In this document: positions 54,831 through 64,000 of the stretch, piece by piece
Layout of the letters: each line of letters starts with the position of its first letter
Position numbering within the stretch: the first letter of the stretch is position 1
Origin: Streptococcus pneumoniae
GTDB taxonomy: Bacteria; Bacillota; Bacilli; Lactobacillales; Streptococcaceae
Assembly (NCBI RefSeq): GCF_001347015.1
Contig: NZ_CFGI01000007.1
Location: 1-64,000 of the forward strand
Direction: 5' to 3'
DNA: 64,000 bases
Notes under the pieces: model-generated
Told to the model about the DNA's origin: nothing
The model's input: only the letters and a program-made list of their open reading frames with translations
The model's database searches: none
Made by a program: the position numbers and the translations under genes

Positions 54831-57332
54831 ATGAGTTTTTACAATCATAAAGAAATTGAGCCTAAGTGGCAGGGCTACTGGGCAGAACATCATACATTTA
54901 AGACTGGAACAGATGCGTCAAAATCTAAGTTTTATGCGCTTGATATGTTCCCTTATCCGTCTGGAGCAGGTCTGCACGTAGGACACCCAGAAGGTTACAC
55001 AGCAACGGATATCCTCAGCCGTTACAAACGTGCGCAAGGCTACAATGTCCTTCACCCAATGGGTTGGGATGCTTTTGGTTTGCCTGCAGAGCAATACGCT
55101 ATGGATACTGGTAATGACCCAGCAGAATTTACAGCTGAGAACATTGCCAACTTCAAACGCCAAATCAATGCGCTTGGATTTTCTTATGACTGGGATCGTG
55201 AAGTCAATACAACAGATCCAAACTACTACAAATGGACTCAGTGGATCTTCACCAAGCTTTACGAAAAAGGCTTGGCCTATGAAGCGGAAGTGCCAGTAAA
55301 CTGGGTTGAGGAATTGGGAACAGCCATCGCCAACGAAGAGGTTCTTCCTGACGGAACTTCTGAGCGTGGAGGCTATCCAGTTGTCCGCAAGCCAATGCGC
55401 CAATGGATGCTCAAAATTACGGCCTACGCAGAGCGCTTGCTCAATGACTTAGATGAACTTGATTGGCCAGAGTCTATCAAGGACATGCAACGCAACTGGA
55501 TTGGGAAATCAACTGGTGCCAATGTAACTTTTAAAGTTAAGGGAACCGACAAGGAATTCACCGTCTTTACCACTCGTCCTGATACCCTTTTCGGTGCGAC
55601 TTTCACTGTTTTGGCTCCTGAGCATGAACTAGTAGATGCCATCACAAGCACAGAGCAAGCAGAGGCAGTAGCAGACTACAAACACCAAGCTAGCCTTAAG
55701 TCTGACTTGGCTCGTACAGACCTTGCCAAAGAAAAAACTGGTGTTTGGACTGGTGCTTATGCCATCAACCCTGTCAATGGCAAGGAAATTCCAATCTGGA
55801 TTGCGGATTACGTTCTTGCTAGTTATGGAACAGGTGCCGTTATGGCTGTACCTGCCCATGACCAACGTGACTGGGAATTTGCCAAACAATTTGACCTTCC
55901 AATCGTAGAAGTACTTGAAGGTGGAAATGTAGCAGAAGCTGCCTACACAGAGGATGGTCTTCATGTCAATTCAGACTTCCTAGATGGACTCAACAAAGAA
56001 GACGCTATTGCCAAGATTGTGGCTTGGTTGGAAGAAAAAGGCTGTGGACAAGAGAAGGTTACCTACCGTCTCCGCGACTGGCTCTTTAGCCGTCAACGTT
56101 ACTGGGGTGAGCCAATTCCAATCATTCATTGGGAAGATGGAACTTCAACAGCTGTTCCTGAAAGTGAATTGCCACTTGTTTTGCCTGTAACCAAGGATAT
56201 CCGCCCTTCAGGTACAGGGGAAAGTCCATTGGCTAACTTGACAGATTGGCTTGAAGTGACTCGTGCAGATGGTGTCAAAGGTCGTCGTGAAACCAACACT
56301 ATGCCACAATGGGCAGGTTCAAGCTGGTACTACCTCCGCTATATTGACCCACAGAATACGGAGAAATTGGCTGATGAGGACCTTCTCAAACAATGGTTGC
56401 CAGTAGATATCTATGTGGGAGGTGCAGAGCATGCTGTACTTCACTTGCTCTACGCTCGTTTCTGGCATAAATTCCTCTATGACCTCGGTGTCGTTCCAAC
56501 TAAGGAACCATTCCAAAAACTCTTTAACCAAGGAATGATTTTGGGAACAAGTTACCGTGACCACCGTGGCGCTCTTGTGGCGACTGACAAGGTTGAAAAA
56601 CGTGATGGTTCTTTCTTCCATGTGGAAACAGGGGAAGAGTTAGAGCAAGCGCCAGCCAAGATGTCTAAATCGCTCAAGAACGTTGTTAACCCAGACGACG
56701 TAGTGGAGCAATACGGTGCCGACACCCTTCGTGTTTATGAAATGTTCATGGGTCCACTTGATGCTTCAATCGCTTGGTCAGAAGAAGGTCTGGAAGGAAG
56801 CCGTAAGTTCCTTGACCGTGTTTACCGTTTGATTACAAGTAAAGAAATCCTTGCGGAAAACAATGGCTCTCTCGACAAGGTTTACAATGAAACGGTCAAA
56901 GCTGTCACAGAACAAATTGAGTCCCTCAAATTCAACACAGCCATTGCCCAACTTATGGTCTTTGTCAACGCTGCTAACAAGGAAGACAAGCTCTATGTAG
57001 ACTACGCCAAAGGATTTATCCAATTGATTGCTCCATTTGCACCTCACTTGGCAGAAGAGCTCTGGCAAACTGTTGCAGCAACAGGTGAGTCAATCTCTTA
57101 CGTGGCTTGGCCAACATGGGACGAAAGTAAATTGGTTGAAGACGAAATCGAAATCGTCGTCCAAATCAAAGGTAAAGTCCGTGCTAAACTCATGGTTGCT
57201 AAAGACCTATCACGCGAAGAATTGCAAGAAATTGCTCTCGCTGATGAAAAAGTCAAAGCAGAAATTGACGGTAAGGACATCGTGAAAGTAATTGCGGTAC
57301 CTAACAAGCTTGTGAATATTGTTGTGAAATAA
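54831..57332 (+). CDS. leuS: Leucyl-tRNA synthetase
   Basis: 833-aa class I aminoacyl-tRNA synthetase. HIGH-type motif in [17 protein letters not shown] near 45; CP1 editing domain about 225-420 ([12 protein letters not shown], and [13 protein letters not shown] with the editing Asp); KMSKS in [10 protein letters not shown] near 615; C-terminal anticodon-binding and tRNA-contact domains follow. GGAGAGAG precedes the ATG. Monocistronic with its own terminator. Confidence 0.98.
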
Positions 57333-57336
57333 GATA

Positions 57337-57372
57337 GGAATCCTTCAGAGTAGAATCTGGGGGATTTTTTGA
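57337..57372 (+). terminator. leuS terminator
   Basis: AATCCTTCAGA and TCTGGGGGATT pair around GTAGAA, followed by TTTTTG. Confidence 0.8.
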
Positions 57373-57441
57373 ATCTTCTTATGAAAGTATGATATACTAT
57401 GGGCAACTATAAAGTTTGAAAAGCGAAACAAGGAGAAAGCT

Positions 57442-58137
57442 ATGCCAGTAAACGAATATGGTCAGATGATTGGTGAGTCAATGGAAGGTTATACACCCGG
57501 TGAATTGCCTTCTATTGATTTCTTAGAAGGGCGTTATGCTCGAATAGAGGCTCTCTCGGTAGAGAAGCATGCGGAGGATTTATTAGCTGTTTATGGTCCT
57601 GATACGCCTCGGGAGATGTGGACCTACCTATTTCAGGAACCAGTGGCAGATATGGAGGAACTGGTCAGCCTTTTAAATCAGATGTTGGCTCGTAAGGACC
57701 GTTTTTACTATGCCATCATAGACAAGGCAACTGGTAAGGCTTTGGGAACTTTTTCTCTCATGCGCATTGACCAGAATAACCGAGTAATAGAAGTGGGAGC
57801 TGTCACTTTTTCTCCAAAACTCAGGGGAACACGGATAGGGACAGAATCCCAGTATCTCTTGGCTTGCTATGTCTTTGAGGAGCTTAACTATCGTCGCTAT
57901 GAATGGAAATGCGATGGTCTTAACATGCTATCAAGACGAGCTGCGGAACGTTTGGGCTTTGTCTACGAAGGAACCTTCCGTCAGGCAGTGGTTTATAAGG
58001 GGCGTACGAGGGATACGGATTGGTTGTCTATGATTGATAAGGACTGGCCAAAAGTCAAAGCTCGTTTGGAAACGTGGTTGGCTCCTGAAAACTTTGATAA
58101 AGATGGACGGCAGTACAAGAGTTTGAGAGAGCTTTAA
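57442..58137 (+). CDS. GNAT family acetyltransferase (RimJ/RimL-like)
   Basis: 231 aa. The GNAT core (LRGTRIGTESQYLLACYVFE for acetyl-CoA; RAAERLGFVYEGTFRQAVV) resembles the RimJ/RimL-type group that acetylates amino groups of proteins or small molecules. Substrate unknown. An extended -10 TATACT (57393-57398) lies upstream and AAGGAG before the ATG. 11 nt from the next acetyltransferase gene, so probably an operon. Confidence 0.88.
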   Translation: MPVNEYGQMIGESMEGYTPGELPSIDFLEGRYARIEALSVEKHAEDLLAVYGPDTPREMWTYLFQEPVADMEELVSLLNQMLARKDRFYYAIIDKATGKALGTFSLMRIDQNNRVIEVGAVTFSPKLRGTRIGTESQYLLACYVFEELNYRRYEWKCDGLNMLSRRAAERLGFVYEGTFRQAVVYKGRTRDTDWLSMIDKDWPKVKARLETWLAPENFDKDGRQYKSLREL

Positions 58138-58148
58138 GAGGTGTTGAG

Positions 58149-58565
58149 ATGATTACTATTAAAAAGCAAGAAATCGTCAAGCTCGAGGATGTTTTGCATC
58201 TCTATCAGGCTGTCGGTTGGACAAATTATACAAATCAACCTCAGATGCTGGAGCAAGCCTTGTCTCATTCATTAGTAATTTATCTGGCACTTGATGGTGA
58301 TGCTGTGGTGGGCTTGATTCGTTTGGTTGGAGATGGATTCTCATCAGTATTGGTTCAGGATTTAATTGTTTTACCAATCTATCAGCGTCAAGGGATTGGT
58401 AGTGCCCTAATGAAAGAGGCTTTAGAGGATTACAAAGATGCCTATCAAGTCCAGCTGGTGACAGAAGAGACAGAAAAAAACGTGGGATTTTATCGTTCTT
58501 TGGGTTTTGAAGTCTTATCCACCTATGATTGTATAGGAATGACTTGGGTGAATCGAGAAAAATAA
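58149..58565 (+). CDS. GNAT family acetyltransferase (short)
   Basis: 138 aa. The acetyl-CoA loop is YQRQGIGSALMKEAL in the middle; the late GFYRSLGFEVLSTYD segment is typical. Substrate unknown. Likely cotranscribed with the preceding acetyltransferase. The CiaR site of the following csRNA begins 16 nt after its stop. Confidence 0.88.
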   Translation: MITIKKQEIVKLEDVLHLYQAVGWTNYTNQPQMLEQALSHSLVIYLALDGDAVVGLIRLVGDGFSSVLVQDLIVLPIYQRQGIGSALMKEALEDYKDAYQVQLVTEETEKNVGFYRSLGFEVLSTYDCIGMTWVNREK

Positions 58566-58580
58566 CAAAACTTGTTTTTT

Positions 58581-58613
58581 CTTAAGCAAAGTTTAAGGAT
58601 GGTCTAGTATCAT
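58581..58613 (+). promoter_or_regulatory. CiaR-dependent csRNA promoter
   Basis: CTTAAG-N5-TTTAAG (58581-58597), a 10-nt spacer and TATCAT (58608-58613). Confidence 0.85.
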
Positions 58614-58619
58614 ATAGTC

Positions 58620-58714
58620 ATTAAATAAAGACCTCCTAACTTTATTTAATGAAATCCTAAAACTTTTTTTCATCATAATCTCCTAATGAAGTCACCCAAT
58701 CAGGTGGCTTTTTT
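58620..58714 (+). ncRNA. CiaR-dependent small RNA (csRNA)
   Basis: About 95 nt. It starts near TCATTAAATAAAGACCTCC and has three anti-Shine-Dalgarno cores (ACCTCCTAAC, AATCCTAAAAC, AATCTCCTAA). It ends at terminator GTCACC/GGTGGC with TTTTTT. Pneumococcus carries two adjacent csRNAs just upstream of ruvB; this one and the next occupy that position. Confidence 0.87.
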
Positions 58715-58770
58715 GTGGGATGAGGTGATGGTAATAGAAATTTTTTGAAAAATGGTAGAATTTGAGAAAA

Positions 58771-58803
58771 GTTAAGCTAGTTTTAAGCTTCGTCTTGTAT
58801 CAT
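58771..58803 (+). promoter_or_regulatory. CiaR-dependent csRNA promoter
   Basis: GTTAAG-N5-TTTAAG (58771-58787), a 10-nt spacer and TATCAT (58798-58803), the same geometry as the neighbouring csRNA. Confidence 0.85.
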
Positions 58804-58809
58804 ATAGTT

Positions 58810-58907
58810 ATTAAATAAAGACCTCCTAACTTTATTTAATAAAATCCTAAACTTTTCTTTTTCATAATAATCTCCCTTAACTCCACCCAATCAGGTGGAG
58901 TTTTTTG
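58810..58907 (+). ncRNA. CiaR-dependent small RNA (csRNA), second of pair
   Basis: About 97 nt and nearly identical over its first 40 nt to the csRNA at 58620, so the two share most targets. It ends at CTCCACC/GGTGGAG with TTTTTT. The sequence of this terminator recurs at the boundary of each toxin-antitoxin unit downstream. Confidence 0.87.
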
Positions 58908-59003
58908 GCTCTATTTCAGGCTTTTGGGGACTATTCTAAAAATCATTTTTCGATATTTTTCGGTATTTTTCGGATTTTGGTCGGGGAATTGGCGGGGACT
59001 TTT

Positions 59004-59207
59004 TTAGCGAATATGACTAAGAAATAGGTCTGTTGTCGCTTCAGCTACTTCAAACTCAATTTGATTGTAAGCGACTGTTAATTGAAGGACTGAAACTGCT
59101 GTAATAATGATTTTGCTTGTCCAGTAGTGGCGTATTAAATGAGGAGTGACATATAAGATTGTCTCTTCGTTTACTAAATCAAAATTTCTATGAAATTGAT
59201 AGAATCT
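59004..59207 (-). pseudogene. Possible gene remnant, identity unknown
   Basis: A 67-codon open minus-strand frame without a start codon, preceded by a stop. It contains NEETILYVTPHLIRHYWTSK and ends ATTDLFLSHIR. It sits only in the first, longer toxin-antitoxin unit. The composition is protein-like, but I cannot name a family. It may be the 3' end of a gene carried in with the unit, or chance. Confidence 0.3.
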
Positions 59208-59278
59208 CTAACTTTCTCTTAATCTTGACCGTTTTGTTGTAAAGCGGTTAAAGCTTGAGAAGCTGAGGATGTAAAGTT

Positions 59279-59307
59279 TTGACAAATTTTGTGAACTATG
59301 GGATAAT
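59279..59307 (+). promoter_or_regulatory. Antitoxin promoter, copy 1
   Basis: TTGACA (59279-59284), a 17-bp spacer and GATAAT (59302-59307). Near-consensus and stronger-looking than the opposing toxin promoter, as expected for a type I antitoxin. Confidence 0.85.
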
Positions 59308-59312
59308 GGAGA

Positions 59313-59391
59313 GGAATTAAGGATTAGTTCTATATCATGGACTAGAAAAGACCCCAAGCTAACTTCCACATTAAGCTTGGGGTCTTTTTTG
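59313..59391 (+). ncRNA. Fst-type antitoxin RNA, copy 1
   Basis: A predicted RNA of about 79 nt from the strong promoter to the terminator AAAAGACCCCAAGCT/AGCTTGGGGTCTTTT (59346-59390), which also ends the convergent toxin mRNA. It contains AAGGATTAGTTC then TATATCATGGACTAG. This repeats AAGGATTAGTTCCATCATGGG, the complement of the toxin mRNA start region, so the antitoxin can pair with the toxin translation start and with the terminator loop, as in the pAD1 par system. Confidence 0.8.
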
Positions 59392-59394
59392 ACA

Positions 59395-59487
59395 CTATCT
59401 ATCTTTGTTTAGCCATTTATCGACTAAGCGAAGAACAACACCGACCACAATTGGTCCGATGATAGTTTTAAGGATTAGTTCCATCAT
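59395..59487 (-). CDS. Fst-family type I toxin, copy 1
   Basis: A 30-aa hydrophobic peptide, MMELILKTIIGPIVVG then VVLRLVDKWLNKDR. One membrane helix is followed by a charged tail, the Fst/Ldr toxin layout; IGPIVVGVVL matches the Fst core (IAPIFVGLVL). Overproduction of such peptides damages the membrane. AAAGGAGGTGA lies 8 nt before the ATG and is masked by an upstream hairpin (CACCGCCT/AGGAGGTG). The minus-strand promoter has TATAAT at 59535-59540 with extended TGG. Confidence 0.83.
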   Translation of the reverse strand: MMELILKTIIGPIVVGVVLRLVDKWLNKDR

Positions 59488-59712
59488 GGGCTATCTCACC
59501 TCCTTTCGTAGGCGGTGTAGCAGTGCCGTAGAATATTATACCACATAAGTGTTAAACTCGGGAGGCACCCAATCAGGTGGAGTTTTTTTGCTCTATTTCA
59601 GGCTTTTGGGGACTATTTTAAACATCATTTTCCGATAACTTTTACTTAATCTTATAAACTTTATTGGACAGATTCTAAAGTTGGAGAAGCTGATTGATGA
59701 AGATATAAACCT

Positions 59713-59741
59713 TTGACAAATTTTGTGAACTGTGGGATAAT
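59713..59741 (+). promoter_or_regulatory. Antitoxin promoter, copy 2
   Basis: TTGACA (59713-59718), a 17-bp spacer and GATAAT (59736-59741). Confidence 0.85.
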
Positions 59742-59746
59742 AAAAA

Positions 59747-59824
59747 GAAATTGAGTACTAGTTCTATATCATAGGCTAGAAAAGACCCCAAGCTAACTTC
59801 CACATTAAGCTTGGGGTCTTTTTT
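59747..59824 (+). ncRNA. Fst-type antitoxin RNA, copy 2
   Basis: About 78 nt with the same terminator (59780-59824). The variable pairing segment is GAGTACTAGTTC, matching GAGTACTAATTC on the plus strand at the toxin-2 start. The single difference (G in the antitoxin against A) still pairs with the toxin mRNA as G-U. Confidence 0.8.
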
Positions 59825-59828
59825 GACA

Positions 59829-59921
59829 CTATTTGTCCTTGTTTAGCCATTTATCGACTAATCGAAGAACGACACCGACCACAATTGGTCCGATGATAGT
59901 TTTGAGTACTAATTCCATCAT
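59829..59921 (-). CDS. Fst-family type I toxin, copy 2
   Basis: 30 aa, MMELVLKTIIGPIVVG then VVLRLVDKWLNKDK; it differs from copy 1 at Val5 and the final Lys. Same ribosome binding site and masking hairpin. Its promoter -10 is TCTAAT (59969-59974) instead of TATAAT, so expression may be weaker than in copies 1 and 3. Confidence 0.83.
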   Translation of the reverse strand: MMELVLKTIIGPIVVGVVLRLVDKWLNKDK

Positions 59922-60137
59922 GGGCTATCTCACCTCCTTTCGTAGGCGGTGTAGCAGTGCCGTAGAATATTAGACCACATAAGTGCTAAACTCGGGAGTC
60001 GCCCAATCAGGCGGAGTTTTTTGCCTCTATTTCAGGCTTTTCGGGAGTTTTCTAAACATCATTTTCCGATAACTTTCGCAATCTTGAACGTCTTGTTGTA
60101 CAGCGGTTAAAGCTTGAAAAGCCGAGAATATAAACCT

Positions 60138-60166
60138 TTGACAAATTTTGTGAACTATGGGATAAT
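60138..60166 (+). promoter_or_regulatory. Antitoxin promoter, copy 3
   Basis: TTGACA (60138-60143), a 17-bp spacer and GATAAT (60161-60166). Confidence 0.85.
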
Positions 60167-60171
60167 AAAAG

Positions 60172-60248
60172 GGAATTAAGTATTGTGTCTATATCATAGG
60201 CTAGAAAAGACCCCAAGCTAACTTCCACATTAAGCTTGGGGTCTTTTT
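60172..60248 (+). ncRNA. Fst-type antitoxin RNA, copy 3
   Basis: About 77 nt, terminator 60205-60248. The variable pairing segment AAGTATTGTGTC matches AAGTATTGTATC at the toxin-3 start, again with one G-for-A change that keeps a G-U pair with the toxin mRNA. Confidence 0.8.
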
Positions 60249-60252
60249 GACA

Positions 60253-60345
60253 CTATTTGTCCTTGTTTAGCCATTTATCGACTAATCGAAGAACGACACC
60301 GACCACAATTGGTCCGATGATAGTTTTAAGTATTGTATCCATCAT
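60253..60345 (-). CDS. Fst-family type I toxin, copy 3
   Basis: 30 aa, MMDTILKTIIGPIVVG then VVLRLVDKWLNKDK. It differs from the other copies in residues 3-5, the codons inside the antitoxin-pairing segment. Ribosome binding site, masking hairpin and a TATAAT promoter (60393-60398) are intact. Confidence 0.83.
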   Translation of the reverse strand: MMDTILKTIIGPIVVGVVLRLVDKWLNKDK

Positions 60346-60442
60346 GGGCTATCTCACCTCCTTTCGCAGGCGGTGTAGAAGTGCCGAACAATATTATACC
60401 ACATATGTGCTAAACTTAGGAGTCACCAATCCAGTGGCTTTT

Positions 60443-60471
60443 TTGTTTGTGGCTTGGATTTTTGATATAAT
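60443..60471 (+). promoter_or_regulatory. ruvB promoter with no room for a leader
   Basis: TTGTTT (60443-60448), a 17-bp spacer and TATAAT (60466-60471) with extended TGA. The start codon is at 60478, about where transcription should begin. Confidence 0.75.
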
Positions 60472-60477
60472 AGAGCC

Positions 60478-61476
60478 ATGAGTAGAATTTTAGATAATGA
60501 GATAATGGGGGATGAGGAGTTAGTAGAACGCACACTCCGTCCTCAGTATTTACGTGAATATATTGGACAGGACAAGGTCAAGGACCAGCTCCAAATCTTT
60601 ATTGAAGCTGCTAAAATGAGAGATGAAGCGCTGGATCATGTGCTCTTATTTGGCCCTCCAGGCTTGGGGAAAACGACCATGGCCTTTGTTATTGCCAACG
60701 AACTAGGTGTCAATCTCAAGCAGACGTCTGGACCTGTCATTGAAAAAGCTGGTGATTTGGTAGCGATTTTGAATGATTTAGAGCCTGGGGATGTCCTTTT
60801 TATTGATGAGATTCATCGTTTGCCTATGTCAGTGGAAGAGGTGCTTTATAGTGCCATGGAGGACTTCTACATTGATATCATGATTGGTGCTGGTGAAGGC
60901 AGTCGCAGTGTTCATTTGGAGTTGCCACCTTTTACCTTGATTGGTGCGACGACTCGGGCTGGTATGCTCTCAAATCCACTACGGGCACGTTTTGGGATTA
61001 CAGGTCATATGGAGTATTATGCCCATGCTGATTTGACGGAAATTGTCGAGCGGACGGCAGATATTTTTGAGATGGAAATCACTCATGAGGCAGCATCTGA
61101 GTTGGCCCTACGTAGTCGTGGGACCCCTCGTATTGCCAATCGTCTCCTCAAGCGCGTGCGCGATTTTGCCCAGATAATGGGGGATGGGGTTATCGATGAT
61201 CTTATTACGGATAAGGCTTTGACCATGCTGGATGTTGACCATGAAGGTCTGGACTATGTGGATCAGAAAATCCTTCGGACCATGATTGAGATGTACGGTG
61301 GTGGCCCTGTCGGATTAGGAACTCTTTCTGTTAATATTGCCGAGGAGCGCGAGACTGTCGAAGACATGTATGAGCCTTACTTGATTCAAAAAGGTTTTAT
61401 CATGCGAACACGGTCTGGACGAGTGGCGACTGCTAAGGCATATGAGCACTTAGGTTATGAACACAATGAAAAATGA
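60478..61476 (+). CDS. ruvB: Holliday junction branch migration ATPase RuvB
   Basis: 332 aa. RuvB drives branch migration with RuvA. Walker A is [13 protein letters not shown] near 60, Walker [11 protein letters not shown], sensor GATTRAG, arginine finger region RARFG, and a C-terminal winged helix. The start [20 protein letters not shown] matches the usual streptococcal start. The ATG is only 6 nt after the -10, so the mRNA is probably leaderless; no ribosome binding site is present. The 3' end overlaps the next gene. Confidence 0.96.
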
Positions 61477-62029
61477 GCAAGAAATCCTAAAAGCTTTCAG
61501 AGAAAATCTTGATATGATGGCTATTCTGACGATTATACGAGACCTTGGTCTGAAAGATTCCTGGTTGGCAGCAGGTTCAGTCAGAAATTTCATCTGGAAT
61601 CTCTTGTCAGACAAATCCCCTTTTGACTGTGAAACAGATGTAGATGTGATTTTCTTTGATCCAGATATTTCTTATGAGGAAACCTTGTCCCTAGAGAAAA
61701 AGCTGAGAGAGGACTTTCCTCAGTACCAGTGGGAATTGAAAAATCAAGTCTATATGCACCAGCATAGCTCTCATACGGCTCCTTATACCAGTTCCCGTGA
61801 TGCCATGAGTAAGTATCCAGAACGGTGTACGGCAGTTGGACTGCGCTTGAATGAAGAATCCGTTTTGGAACTCTTTACTCCATACGGTCTGGAGGATATT
61901 TTGAATTTTCAAGTTCGTCCAACTCCTCATTTTTTAGAGAATCAAGAACGAATGGAACTCTATCAAACACGATTATCCAAGAAAAATTGGCAGGAGAAAT
62001 GGAAAAATTTGATTTTTAAAACTTCTTAA
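61457..62029 (+). CDS. Nucleotidyltransferase-like protein (DUF925 family)
   Basis: 190 aa. It resembles the nucleotidyltransferase-fold DUF925 family: [11 protein letters not shown], then [12 protein letters not shown] supplying the acidic pair. Activity and substrate unknown. It overlaps ruvB by 20 nt (ATG 61457) or 11 nt (ATG 61466), so they are coupled. The stop codon is inside the CiaR site of the next csRNA. Confidence 0.85.
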
Positions 62030-62057
62030 GGAAACTTTAAGCTAGGAAGTGTATACT
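62025..62057 (+). promoter_or_regulatory. CiaR-dependent csRNA promoter
   Basis: CTTAAG-N5-TTTAAG (62025-62041), a 10-nt spacer and TATACT (62052-62057). The first half-site overlaps the preceding stop codon. Confidence 0.85.
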
Positions 62058-62063
62058 AAGTTC

Positions 62064-62158
62064 ATAAGTTAAGAAGACCTTAACTTAAACTCCTAAAACT
62101 TTTTCATAATAATCTCCCTATAAAAAATAAAGTCGCCCAATCAGGCGGCTTATTTTTT
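62064..62158 (+). ncRNA. CiaR-dependent small RNA (csRNA)
   Basis: About 95 nt. Its 5' part differs from the other three csRNAs (AAGTTAAGAAGACCTTAACTT, a hairpin placing GACC in the loop). The later ACTCCTAAAACTTTTTCATAA and AATCTCCCT cores are shared. It ends at GTCGCC/GGCGGC with a T run. The altered first core suggests a partly different target set. Confidence 0.85.
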
Positions 62159-62185
62159 TGGAAATGGGCTTTGTGCCTGAGAATA

Positions 62186-62299
62186 ATACTCAATGAAAAT
62201 CAAAGACCAAACTAGGAAGCTAGCCGCAGGTTGCTCAAAACACTGTTTTGAGGTTGCAGATAGAGCTGACGTGGTTTGAATTTGATTTTCGAAGAGTAT
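62186..62299 (-). repeat. BOX element (A-C type, reversed)
   Basis: Bounded by ATACTC/GAGTAT, with the boxC end first (CAATGAAAATCAAAGACCAA) and the boxA end last (GACGTGGTTTGAATTTGATT). Opposite orientation to the BOX at 38488. Confidence 0.9.
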
Positions 62300-62336
62300 A
62301 AATAGCTTAGTGATAGAAGAAAATAGGGAAATATGG

Positions 62337-62342
62337 TATAAT
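62337..62342 (+). promoter_or_regulatory. uppS-cdsA-eep promoter -10
   Basis: TATAAT with extended TGG, 33 bp before the uppS start codon. Confidence 0.65.
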
Positions 62343-62374
62343 GAAACGATAGATTTTTGAATAGGAATAAGATC

Positions 62375-63133
62375 ATGTTTGGATTTTTTAAGAAAGATAA
62401 GGCTGTGGAAGTAGAGGTTCCGACACAGGTTCCTGCTCATATCGGCATCATCATGGATGGAAATGGCCGTTGGGCTAAAAAACGTATGCAACCGCGAGTT
62501 TTTGGACACAAGGCGGGCATGGAAGCATTGCAAACTGTGACCAAGGCAGCCAACAAACTAGGCGTCAAGGTGATTACAGTTTATGCTTTTTCTACGGAAA
62601 ATTGGACCCGTCCAGATCAGGAAGTCAAGTTTATCATGAACTTGCCAGTAGAGTTTTATGATAATTATGTCCCGGAACTGCATGCAAATAATGTTAAGAT
62701 TCAAATGATTGGCGAAACGGACCGCCTGCCTAAGCAAACCTTTGAAGCTCTGACTAAGGCTGAGGAATTGACTAAGAACAACACAGGTTTGATTCTTAAT
62801 TTTGCCCTCAACTATGGTGGACGTGCTGAGATTACACAGGCTCTTAAGTTGATTTCCCAGGATGTGTTAGATGCCAAAATCAACCCAGGTGACATCACAG
62901 AGGAATTGATTGGTAATTATCTTTTTACCCAGCATTTACCTAAGGAGTTACGAGACCCAGACTTGATTATTCGGACTAGTGGAGAATTGCGCTTGAGCAA
63001 TTTCCTTCCATGGCAGGGAGCCTACAGTGAGCTCTATTTTACGGATACCTTGTGGCCTGATTTTGACGAGGCGGCCTTGCAGGAAGCCATTCTTGCCTAC
63101 AATCGTCGTCATCGCCGATTTGGAGGAGTTTAG
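62375..63133 (+). CDS. uppS: Undecaprenyl diphosphate synthase
   Basis: 252-aa cis-prenyltransferase that makes the C55 carrier for wall polymers. Catalytic Asp in HIGIIMDGNGRWAKKR; FSTENW and RTSGELRLSNFLPWQ are conserved. ATG 62375 follows AGGAATAAG; the frame is open upstream, but the MFGFFKKDK start fits streptococcal homologues. First gene of uppS-cdsA-eep. Confidence 0.95.
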   Translation: MFGFFKKDKAVEVEVPTQVPAHIGIIMDGNGRWAKKRMQPRVFGHKAGMEALQTVTKAANKLGVKVITVYAFSTENWTRPDQEVKFIMNLPVEFYDNYVPELHANNVKIQMIGETDRLPKQTFEALTKAEELTKNNTGLILNFALNYGGRAEITQALKLISQDVLDAKINPGDITEELIGNYLFTQHLPKELRDPDLIIRTSGELRLSNFLPWQGAYSELYFTDTLWPDFDEAALQEAILAYNRRHRRFGGV

Positions 63134-63141
63134 GAGGAAAT

Positions 63142-63945
63142 ATGACACAGGATTTACAGAAAAGAACCTTGTTTGCAGGGATTGCCCTGGCTATTTTCCT
63201 ACCAATTTTAATGATTGGTGGCCTCTTGCTTCAGATAGCAATTGGAATCATAGCCATGCTAGCCATGCATGAACTTTTGAAGATGAGAGGTCTAGAGACC
63301 ATGACGATGGAGGGCCTCTTGACCCTTTTTGCAACCTTTGCCTTGACCATTCCCTTGGAGAATTACCTGACTTTTTTGCCAGTTGATGGGAATGTGGTTG
63401 CTTATAGTGTTTTGATTTCAATCATGTTAGGAACGACTGTTTTTAGCAAGTCTTATACGATTGAGGACGCTGTTTTCCCTCTTGCTATGAGTTTCTATGT
63501 GGGCTTTGGTTTTAATGCTTTACTAGATGCTAGAATTGCAGGTTTAGATAAGGCTCTATTGGCCTTGTGTATCGTCTGGGCGACAGACAGTGGTGCCTAT
63601 CTTGTTGGGATGAACTATGGGAAACGAAAATTAGCTCCGACAGTTTCTCCAAATAAAACCTTTGAGGGTGCCTTGGGTGGTATTTTAGGCGCTATTTTAG
63701 TAACTATCATCTTTATGATAGTTGACAGCACAGTCGCTCTTCCGTATGGAATTTACAAGATGTCAGTCTTTGCTATTTTCTTTAGTGTGGCTGGACAATT
63801 TGGTGATTTACTAGAAAGTTCGATCAAGCGTCACTTTGGTGTCAAGGATTCTGGGAAATTTATCCCTGGACATGGTGGTGTTTTGGATCGTTTCGATAGT
63901 ATGTTGCTTGTATTTCCAATCATGCACTTATTTGGACTCTTTTAA
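63142..63945 (+). CDS. cdsA: Phosphatidate cytidylyltransferase
   Basis: 267-aa integral membrane enzyme (CTP + phosphatidate to CDP-diacylglycerol), about seven to eight helices, with the C-terminal signature VKDSGKFIPGHGGVLDRFDS. The gene lies 8 nt after uppS with AGGAGG between, and ahead of eep. Confidence 0.96.
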   Translation: MTQDLQKRTLFAGIALAIFLPILMIGGLLLQIAIGIIAMLAMHELLKMRGLETMTMEGLLTLFATFALTIPLENYLTFLPVDGNVVAYSVLISIMLGTTVFSKSYTIEDAVFPLAMSFYVGFGFNALLDARIAGLDKALLALCIVWATDSGAYLVGMNYGKRKLAPTVSPNKTFEGALGGILGAILVTIIFMIVDSTVALPYGIYKMSVFAIFFSVAGQFGDLLESSIKRHFGVKDSGKFIPGHGGVLDRFDSMLLVFPIMHLFGLF

Positions 63946-63966
63946 TCAAAAGACGGAGGAAACACT

Positions 63967-64000
63967 ATGCTCGGAATTTTAACCTTTATTCTGGTTTTTG
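63967..64000 (+). CDS. eep: Eep/RseP site-2 protease (5' fragment, cut by window end)
   Basis: Only 11 codons are visible (MLGILTFILVF), preceded by ACGGAGGAAA. This start and the place after cdsA match the intramembrane RIP metalloprotease Eep, which processes signal peptides and pheromones. The HExxH motif lies beyond the window. Confidence 0.8.
   Translation, partial: MLGILTFILVF

What the first reader, a model, noticed from the sequence alone, without database searches (positions are those of the whole stretch)
59279..60400. Three tandem Fst toxin-antitoxin loci with co-varying, copy-specific pairing segments
Each unit has an Fst-like toxin on the minus strand, a strong convergent antitoxin promoter and a shared terminator. 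The segment repeated between antitoxin RNA and toxin start differs between units yet matches within each: AAGGATTAGTTC/AAGGATTAGTTC, GAGTACTAGTTC/GAGTACTAATTC, AAGTATTGTGTC/AAGTATTGTATC. Both within-pair core differences are G in the antitoxin where the toxin mRNA has U, so pairing is kept by wobble. Co-variation on top of an almost invariant toxin body suggests selection for private antitoxins: one antitoxin should not silence the other toxins, so loss of a single unit could be lethal. The Fst/pAD1 par architecture is known; the orthogonal tandem array is the new point.
Basis: partly seen in the sequence, partly recalled or inferred. Interest (0 to 1): 0.85.

Follow-up and report, generated by a model that had tools for sequence, protein, structure and literature searches.

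The report
Three toxin-antitoxin units with private codes
Beside ruvB this streptococcus carries three near-identical copies of a known self-toxin with an RNA antidote, and comparison with related genomes suggests each antidote silences mainly its own copy, because the mixed-up copies found in relatives all had an off-consensus toxin promoter or a truncated toxin.

Summary
In detail: three tandem par/Fst type I toxin-antitoxin units lie between two csRNA genes and ruvB, each with its own 12-nt pairing segment repeated in antitoxin RNA and toxin mRNA. Predicted pairing of the 5' halves favours cognate pairs by about 10-15 kcal/mol; full-length RNAs do not discriminate, because all three share one terminator. 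Relatives found among 284 Streptococcus genomes carry three recurrent specificity types, plus a fourth in four genomes. Matching within units is tighter than linkage to the loop lying between the repeats. Natural hybrids exist: of 64 units with intact toxin and both repeats parsed, 8 are mismatched, and 0 of 8 have a consensus toxin promoter, against 47 of 56 matched units (Fisher p 5.5e-6; post hoc, related units). A second, weakly discriminating array family does not show this (7 of 9). Private antitoxins are thus well supported, though untested at the bench. The lethality claim is not supported: unit number and type vary between genomes, and this array's middle toxin promoter is off-consensus. 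Non-crossing type I antitoxins were already known (SprA1/SprA2; ZorO/ZorP), so this is a new variant.

The parts
59279..59307 (+). Unit 1 antitoxin promoter (TTGACA-17-GATAAT, TG before -10)
59314..59390 (+). Unit 1 predicted antitoxin RNA, about 77 nt, type a
   Evidence: predicted from promoter and terminator; orthologous srf-07 in pneumococcus D39V annotated at 232279-232354 (PMC6212727 passage)
59319..59330 (+). Unit 1 antitoxin copy of the specificity repeat (AAGGATTAGTTC)
59350..59384 (.). Unit 1 bidirectional terminator hairpin, identical in all three units
59395..59487 (-). Unit 1 Fst-family toxin ORF, 30 aa
59470..59481 (-). Unit 1 toxin copy of the specificity repeat, codons 3-6
59535..59545 (-). 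Unit 1 toxin promoter, extended -10, consensus
59713..59741 (+). Unit 2 antitoxin promoter
59748..59824 (+). Unit 2 predicted antitoxin RNA, type b
59753..59764 (+). Unit 2 antitoxin copy of the specificity repeat (GAGTACTAGTTC)
59784..59818 (.). Unit 2 bidirectional terminator
59829..59921 (-). Unit 2 Fst-family toxin ORF, 30 aa
59904..59915 (-). Unit 2 toxin copy of the specificity repeat (one G-U wobble to its antitoxin)
59969..59979 (-). Unit 2 toxin promoter region, -10 off-consensus
60138..60166 (+). Unit 3 antitoxin promoter
60173..60248 (+). Unit 3 predicted antitoxin RNA, type c
60178..60189 (+). Unit 3 antitoxin copy of the specificity repeat (AAGTATTGTGTC)
60209..60243 (.). Unit 3 bidirectional terminator
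60253..60345 (-). Unit 3 Fst-family toxin ORF, 30 aa
60328..60339 (-). Unit 3 toxin copy of the specificity repeat (one G-U wobble to its antitoxin)
60393..60403 (-). Unit 3 toxin promoter, extended -10, consensus

Best explanation
Three tandem chromosomal par/Fst type I toxin-antitoxin units stand beside ruvB in a streptococcus, probably of the mitis group. In each, a roughly 77-nt antitoxin RNA and a convergent toxin mRNA share a terminator and are transcribed across direct repeats; pairing at the repeats covers the toxin start codon and blocks translation. The 12-nt repeat next to the start codon is a specificity code that differs between units (types a, b, c), so each antitoxin silences its own toxin well and the others poorly, while the shared terminator loop allows only non-specific first contact. 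Selection removes recombinant units whose expressed toxin lacks a type-matched antitoxin. Shown here: anatomy, predicted energies, type matching across genomes, and the promoter state of natural hybrids. Inferred: the pairing mechanism (from pAD1 par and S. mutans), toxicity, expression in this strain, and the cause of the hybrid pattern.
For: Family membership; promoters; nine-way energies; 58 matched and 10 hybrid units separate without overlap in predicted pairing. In the 16 genomes with several units and more than one type, 34 of 38 units match, against a permutation mean of 16.2 and maximum of 31 in 100,000. Antitoxin-toxin type association (Cramer V 0.80, n=64) exceeds either's association with the loop between them (0.57, 0.46; bootstrap differences 0.05..0.40 and 0.18..0.47). 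Consensus toxin promoter in 47 of 56 matched and 0 of 8 hybrid units with intact toxin (p 5.5e-6; counting G269, missed by the parser, 47 of 57, p 8.7e-6; collapsed haplotypes 22 of 29 and 0 of 8, p 1.7e-4). A promoter model built from the other array family gives medians 17.7 and 2.7 (one-sided p 1.5e-5), while 9 of 10 hybrids and 52 of 58 matched units keep the antitoxin promoter pattern. Array family B: 7 of 9 repeat-tail hybrids have a consensus-type promoter. Orthologous RNAs are detected in pneumococcus (PMC9812572, passages).
Against: No bench test. The promoter pattern was noticed before it was tested, and several hybrids share a promoter allele. Nine matched units, including window unit 2, also have off-consensus toxin promoters, and with the independent model the scores overlap: the best hybrids score 10.6, and 14 of 56 matched units score 10.6 or less. 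One hybrid lineage (G089, G200) keeps the -10 hexamer and only lacks the upstream extension, and G200 has no matching antitoxin in the genome. Full-length predicted duplexes do not discriminate. Family B used a looser promoter pattern and only part of its loci. Chimaeras from short-read assembly cannot be excluded in draft genomes, though one hybrid (G099) is on a single 2.09-Mb contig.
Confidence: 0.75

Rival explanations
1. Any antitoxin silences any toxin in the array. First contact at the identical terminator loops and pairing at the shared start-codon repeat suffice, and the specificity-repeat differences only tune the rate.
For: All three units share the terminator and loop; full-length predicted interaction is equal within about 2 kcal/mol for all nine pairs. 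pAD1 pairing starts at the terminator loop (PMC7472228 passage). Non-cognate 5' halves still gain 2.6-7.5 kcal/mol.
Against: 0 of 8 mismatched units with intact toxin have a consensus toxin promoter against 47 of 56 matched. [quoted passage not shown]
Confidence: 0.15
2. The two repeat copies of a unit match because gene conversion or inheritance keeps them alike, with no selection on pairing.
For: The two repeats are about 150 bp apart, and loops, types and promoter alleles occur in mixed combinations, which points to recombination.
Against: Type matching survives exchange of the loop lying between the repeats. Single-base G-U differences are kept in every matched c-type unit and all but one matched b-type unit listed, which conversion would erase. 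Hybrids exist but with off-consensus toxin promoters.
Confidence: 0.08
3. The array is a decaying remnant with no current function.
For: Unit 2 toxin promoter off-consensus; truncated toxins and antitoxin-only copies in relatives.
Against: 47 of 56 matched units with intact toxin have a consensus toxin promoter, and toxin ORFs 2 and 3 are identical outside the repeat. Orthologous RNAs are detected in pneumococcus.
Confidence: 0.05

Closest known systems
par of plasmid pAD1 (Fst / RNA II), Enterococcus faecalis
   Same: Fst-family toxin, convergent RNAs, shared bidirectional terminator, direct repeats DRa/DRb over the translation start, predicted 5' stem covering the Shine-Dalgarno (PMC7472228 passages; anatomy)
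   Different: Chromosomal, three tandem copies, unit-specific repeat codes
srf-07/spd_sr24 upstream of ruvB in S. pneumoniae D39
   Same: Same position (two csRNAs, unit, ruvB, further csRNA), Fst family, antitoxin of about 76 nt, both RNAs detected by RNA-seq (PMC6212727, PMC9812572; passages)
   Different: One unit described there, three types side by side here
srf-27/srf-28 tandem pair downstream of fucR in S. pneumoniae
   Same: Tandem Fst-type units (PMC9812572 passage); a three-unit array of Fst-like peptides lies on contig C12 of this genome. That it is the same locus is not tested
   Different: C12 peptides match the Fst models only below the curated cut-offs and their repeat code is largely shared between units
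SprA1/SprA1AS and SprA2/SprA2AS, Staphylococcus aureus
   Same: Two related type I systems whose antitoxins do not cross-regulate, shown in vitro and in vivo (PMC6393315 passages)
   Different: Not described as a tandem array in the passages seen
zorO-orzO / zorP-orzP, E. coli O157:H7
   Same: Tandem near-identical type I pairs in which a 3-nt region of the antitoxin decides whether zorO is repressed (PMC3919570 passages)
   Different: Divergently encoded antitoxin with 18 nt of pairing; not filed as Fst family in the passages seen
fst-Sm/srSm, Streptococcus mutans
   Same: Streptococcal Fst type I system with direct tandem repeats over the start codon (PMC3543317 passages)
   Different: Single locus in the passages seen

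Membership tests
par/Fst type I toxin-antitoxin family | Toxin peptide matches the Fst family model | tested here: met
   PF13955 44.0-44.3 bits (cut-off 36), NF033608 49.2-51.7 bits (cut-off 26)
par/Fst type I toxin-antitoxin family | Convergent antitoxin and toxin promoters | tested here: met
   Antitoxin promoters 11 of 12 in all three units; toxin extended -10 consensus in units 1 and 3, off-consensus in unit 2
par/Fst type I toxin-antitoxin family | Shared bidirectional terminator | tested here: met
   Same inverted-repeat stem in all units, folding in both RNAs
par/Fst type I toxin-antitoxin family | Direct repeats in both RNAs over the toxin translation start | tested here: met
par/Fst type I toxin-antitoxin family | 5' stem-loop in toxin mRNA covering the Shine-Dalgarno | tested here: met
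   Predicted fold of all three toxin mRNAs; prediction only
[quoted passage not shown]
   Reported not universal in the family (PMC7472228 passage)
par/Fst type I toxin-antitoxin family | Toxin harmful and neutralised by the RNA antitoxin | not testable with these tools
   Needs expression assays
Set of mutually orthogonal type I antitoxins | Each antitoxin pairs with its own toxin mRNA far better than with the others at the translation start | tested here: met
   5'-half energies; prediction only
Set of mutually orthogonal type I antitoxins | No shared contact site that would allow cross-binding | tested here: not met
   Terminator loops identical in the three window units; full-length energies equal within about 2 kcal/mol
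Set of mutually orthogonal type I antitoxins | No silencing of non-cognate toxins in the cell | not testable with these tools
   Indirect evidence only, from natural hybrids

The most novel reading that the evidence does not exclude
The ruvB-linked units form a shared pool of three recognition codes across related streptococci, and swapping half a unit is incompatible with survival while the toxin promoter works. In naturally transformable species this would make the array a selfish, self-enforcing barrier to recombination at this locus: incoming DNA that replaces one repeat but not its partner kills the recipient, so only matched units or units with silenced toxins persist.
Probability: 0.2. 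Interest if true: 0.75.

Novelty: new variant of a known kind. Interest (0 to 1): 0.52.

Why it matters
Why bacteria keep several near-identical type I toxin-antitoxin copies, and whether the copies are redundant, is an open question usually approached by overexpression. Here naturally recombined units act as a ready-made experiment: every mismatched pair found has an off-consensus toxin promoter or a truncated toxin, which is evidence that RNA specificity matters in wild cells. The same genome holds a second Fst-like array with a mostly interchangeable code, giving a built-in comparison. If confirmed, a 12-nt code with four discrete solutions is a compact system for studying how orthogonal RNA regulators arise.

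Tried and rejected
Rfam gave no match to the units at E up to 1 in 55000-64000, only csRNAs and one weak leader hit. First parsing scripts missed units through strict patterns and were replaced; that one still missed the antitoxin of G269, which on reading is d/d. Dropped before the ratios: G057, G161 and G256 (nothing parsed), G269, and the antitoxin-only rows G047, G109, G102, G125 and G168, the last three at contig ends. Family B used 47 parsed units from 27 of the 40 genomes with matches, one row (G167) left out because its repeat starts differently, and a looser promoter pattern. Full-length duplex energy as a discriminator was rejected. A hold-out set was sought in genome contigs, but 33 of 34 records had contig lengths of genomes already used; the new one (L135) is c/c with a consensus promoter and decides nothing. 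Gene conversion alone was considered and rejected (see rivals). Literature: eight searches listed no paper that I recognised as treating specificity types or hybrid units of streptococcal Fst arrays; only the open-licence library was searched, listings were capped, and the 2009 Weaver, 2010 Fozo and 2010 Han papers are not held.

Full report
What is there. Between two csRNA genes (58620-58714, 58810-58905) and ruvB (60478 onwards, named from recall and its place in pneumococcus) lie three direct repeats, 434 and 424 bp apart. Each contains a plus-strand promoter, an antitoxin RNA of about 77 nt (predicted), an inverted-repeat terminator and a 30-aa minus-strand ORF of the Fst family.

Pairing. 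Antitoxin and toxin mRNA of each unit can pair over a 12-nt repeat in codons 3-6 and a shared repeat over the start codon. For the 5' halves, net predicted energies are -17.3, -17.8 and -17.3 kcal/mol for cognate pairs and -2.6 to -7.5 for the six non-cognate pairs. For full-length RNAs all nine pairs are equal within about 2 kcal/mol, because the terminator is shared. Discrimination can therefore come only from the 5' repeats. Toxin ORFs 2 and 3 differ at 5 of 93 positions, all inside the repeat (chance 1.5e-5). ORF 1 differs from each of them at 9 positions, 4 inside the repeat and 5 outside.

Across genomes. A toxin search found matches in 49 of 284 Streptococcus genomes, and an antitoxin pattern in 46 of 284. 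I fetched 49 regions and four more antitoxin sites. A ruvB motif lies within the fetched region in 39 of 46 loci checked. Units have three recurrent codes, a, b and c; a fourth, d, occurs in four genomes (G175, G181, G182, G269), away from ruvB as far as fetched. Of 68 units with both repeats parsed, 58 are matched and 10 hybrid. Predicted pairing spans -12.3 to -23.8 in matched units and -3.4 to -9.9 in hybrids, without overlap. In the 16 genomes with several units and more than one type, 34 of 38 units are matched; shuffling antitoxin types within genomes gives a mean of 16.2 and at most 31 in 100,000 trials. The terminator loop sits between the two repeats yet is less tied to either (Cramer V 0.57 and 0.46) than they are to each other (0.80, n=64; bootstrap over genomes). 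That is the pattern expected if recombination shuffles the region and selection keeps pairs matched.

Natural hybrids. Among units with an intact toxin, 47 of 56 matched units have a consensus extended -10 toxin promoter; 0 of 8 hybrid units do (Fisher p 5.5e-6). Counting G269, which the parser missed, gives 47 of 57 (p 8.7e-6), and including broken toxins 48 of 58 and 0 of 10 (p 6.4e-7). Collapsing repeated haplotypes of types a-c gives 22 of 29 and 0 of 8 (p 1.7e-4). The other two hybrids have truncated toxins. The criterion was chosen after I had seen the listing, so I scored promoters again with a model built only from array family B: median 17.7 in matched, 2.7 in hybrid units (one-sided p 1.5e-5). 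The scores overlap: intact-toxin hybrids range from -16.9 to 10.6, and 14 of 56 matched units score 10.6 or less. The effect is on the toxin side: 9 of 10 hybrids keep the antitoxin promoter pattern, as do 52 of 58 matched units. A GGAGG Shine-Dalgarno is present in 53 of 58 matched and 6 of 10 hybrid units. As controls, matched units whose loop had been exchanged have a consensus toxin promoter in 4 of 6 cases, and family B hybrids in 7 of 9 by a looser pattern (34 of 37 in the other family B units). Four of the ten hybrids have a matching antitoxin elsewhere in the genome (G094, G089, G159, G099); six do not (G200, G096, G267, G172, G014, G233, with the genome-wide pattern). The weakest case is G200: its toxin is intact, its -10 hexamer is present though the upstream extension is displaced, and no matching antitoxin was found. 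Antitoxins without a usable toxin occur (G047, G109).

A second array in the same genome. Contig C12 carries three further Fst-like units. Their peptides match the Fst models only below the curated cut-offs (NCBIfam 17.8-19.0 bits against 26, Pfam 15.2-15.8 against 36). Their repeats share a common core and the last few bases differ; antitoxins 1 and 2 are predicted to pair with all three toxins at -14.0 to -19.1 kcal/mol, antitoxin 3 at -8.5 to -13.9, weakest with its own toxin. So the third toxin there would rely on its neighbours' antitoxins. A tandem pair of Fst-type units is described in pneumococcus (srf-27/srf-28; PMC9812572, passages). One genome thus appears to carry a discriminating and a mostly interchangeable array.

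How it most likely works. By analogy with pAD1 par (PMC7472228, passages) and fst-Sm/srSm (PMC3543317, passages), the RNAs first meet at the terminator loops and then pair at the repeats, hiding the start codon. Cross-binding at the identical loops is expected, but cross-silencing is predicted to be poor. [quoted passage not shown] Toxicity, expression in this strain and actual silencing are inferred. Orthologous RNAs upstream of ruvB are detected in pneumococcus by RNA-seq (PMC9812572, passages; PMC6212727, passages); that paper (PMC9812572) also ran northern blots, whose antitoxin patterns did not agree with its RNA-seq.

What does not hold. The statement that loss of one unit could be lethal is not supported: unit number and type vary between genomes, the middle unit's toxin promoter is off-consensus here, and deleting the S. 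mutans locus had no effect on growth in liquid medium (abstract passage). The claim that orthogonality is the new point is only partly right, because non-crossing type I antitoxins, including a tandem pair, are published. What I did not find in print (searches, open-licence papers only, capped listings) is the set of recurrent specificity types, the natural hybrids and their promoter state.

Verdict. An ordinary family in an informative arrangement. The mechanism of private antitoxins is probable (0.75), resting on prediction and comparative evidence; the hybrid-promoter pattern is the strongest and newest part, and is post hoc.

Noticed in passing
window 58620-58714, 58810-58905, 62063-62155: Three Cia-dependent csRNA genes flank the array and ruvB, an order like that listed for pneumococcus D39 (passage).
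   Followed up: partly
L005 1400-2400 (contig C12 of the window's genome): A second three-unit Fst-like array with a largely shared pairing repeat; its third unit has a mismatched antitoxin tail and an altered Shine-Dalgarno.
   Followed up: partly
L070, L080, L082, L117: Toxin reading frames interrupted near the same 3' position in four genomes. In L070, L082 and L117 an insert beginning TAATACTCTTCG was read directly (it resembles the pneumococcal RUP element, recalled, not tested); in L080 only the altered frame was seen.
   Followed up: partly
units of types b, c and d in the genomes examined: A single antitoxin-G to toxin-U wobble near the start codon is kept in nearly all b, c and d units although, by the genetic code, a Watson-Crick pair would not change the peptide; unexplained.
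   Followed up: no
terminator loops, ruvB-type units: Three loop types occur, type a mostly with one and types b and c mixed; whether loop type affects first contact is untested.
   Followed up: partly
L040, L059, L064, L073: Units of one array separated by about 4-9 kb of other sequence in four genomes, so arrays can be split.
   Followed up: no
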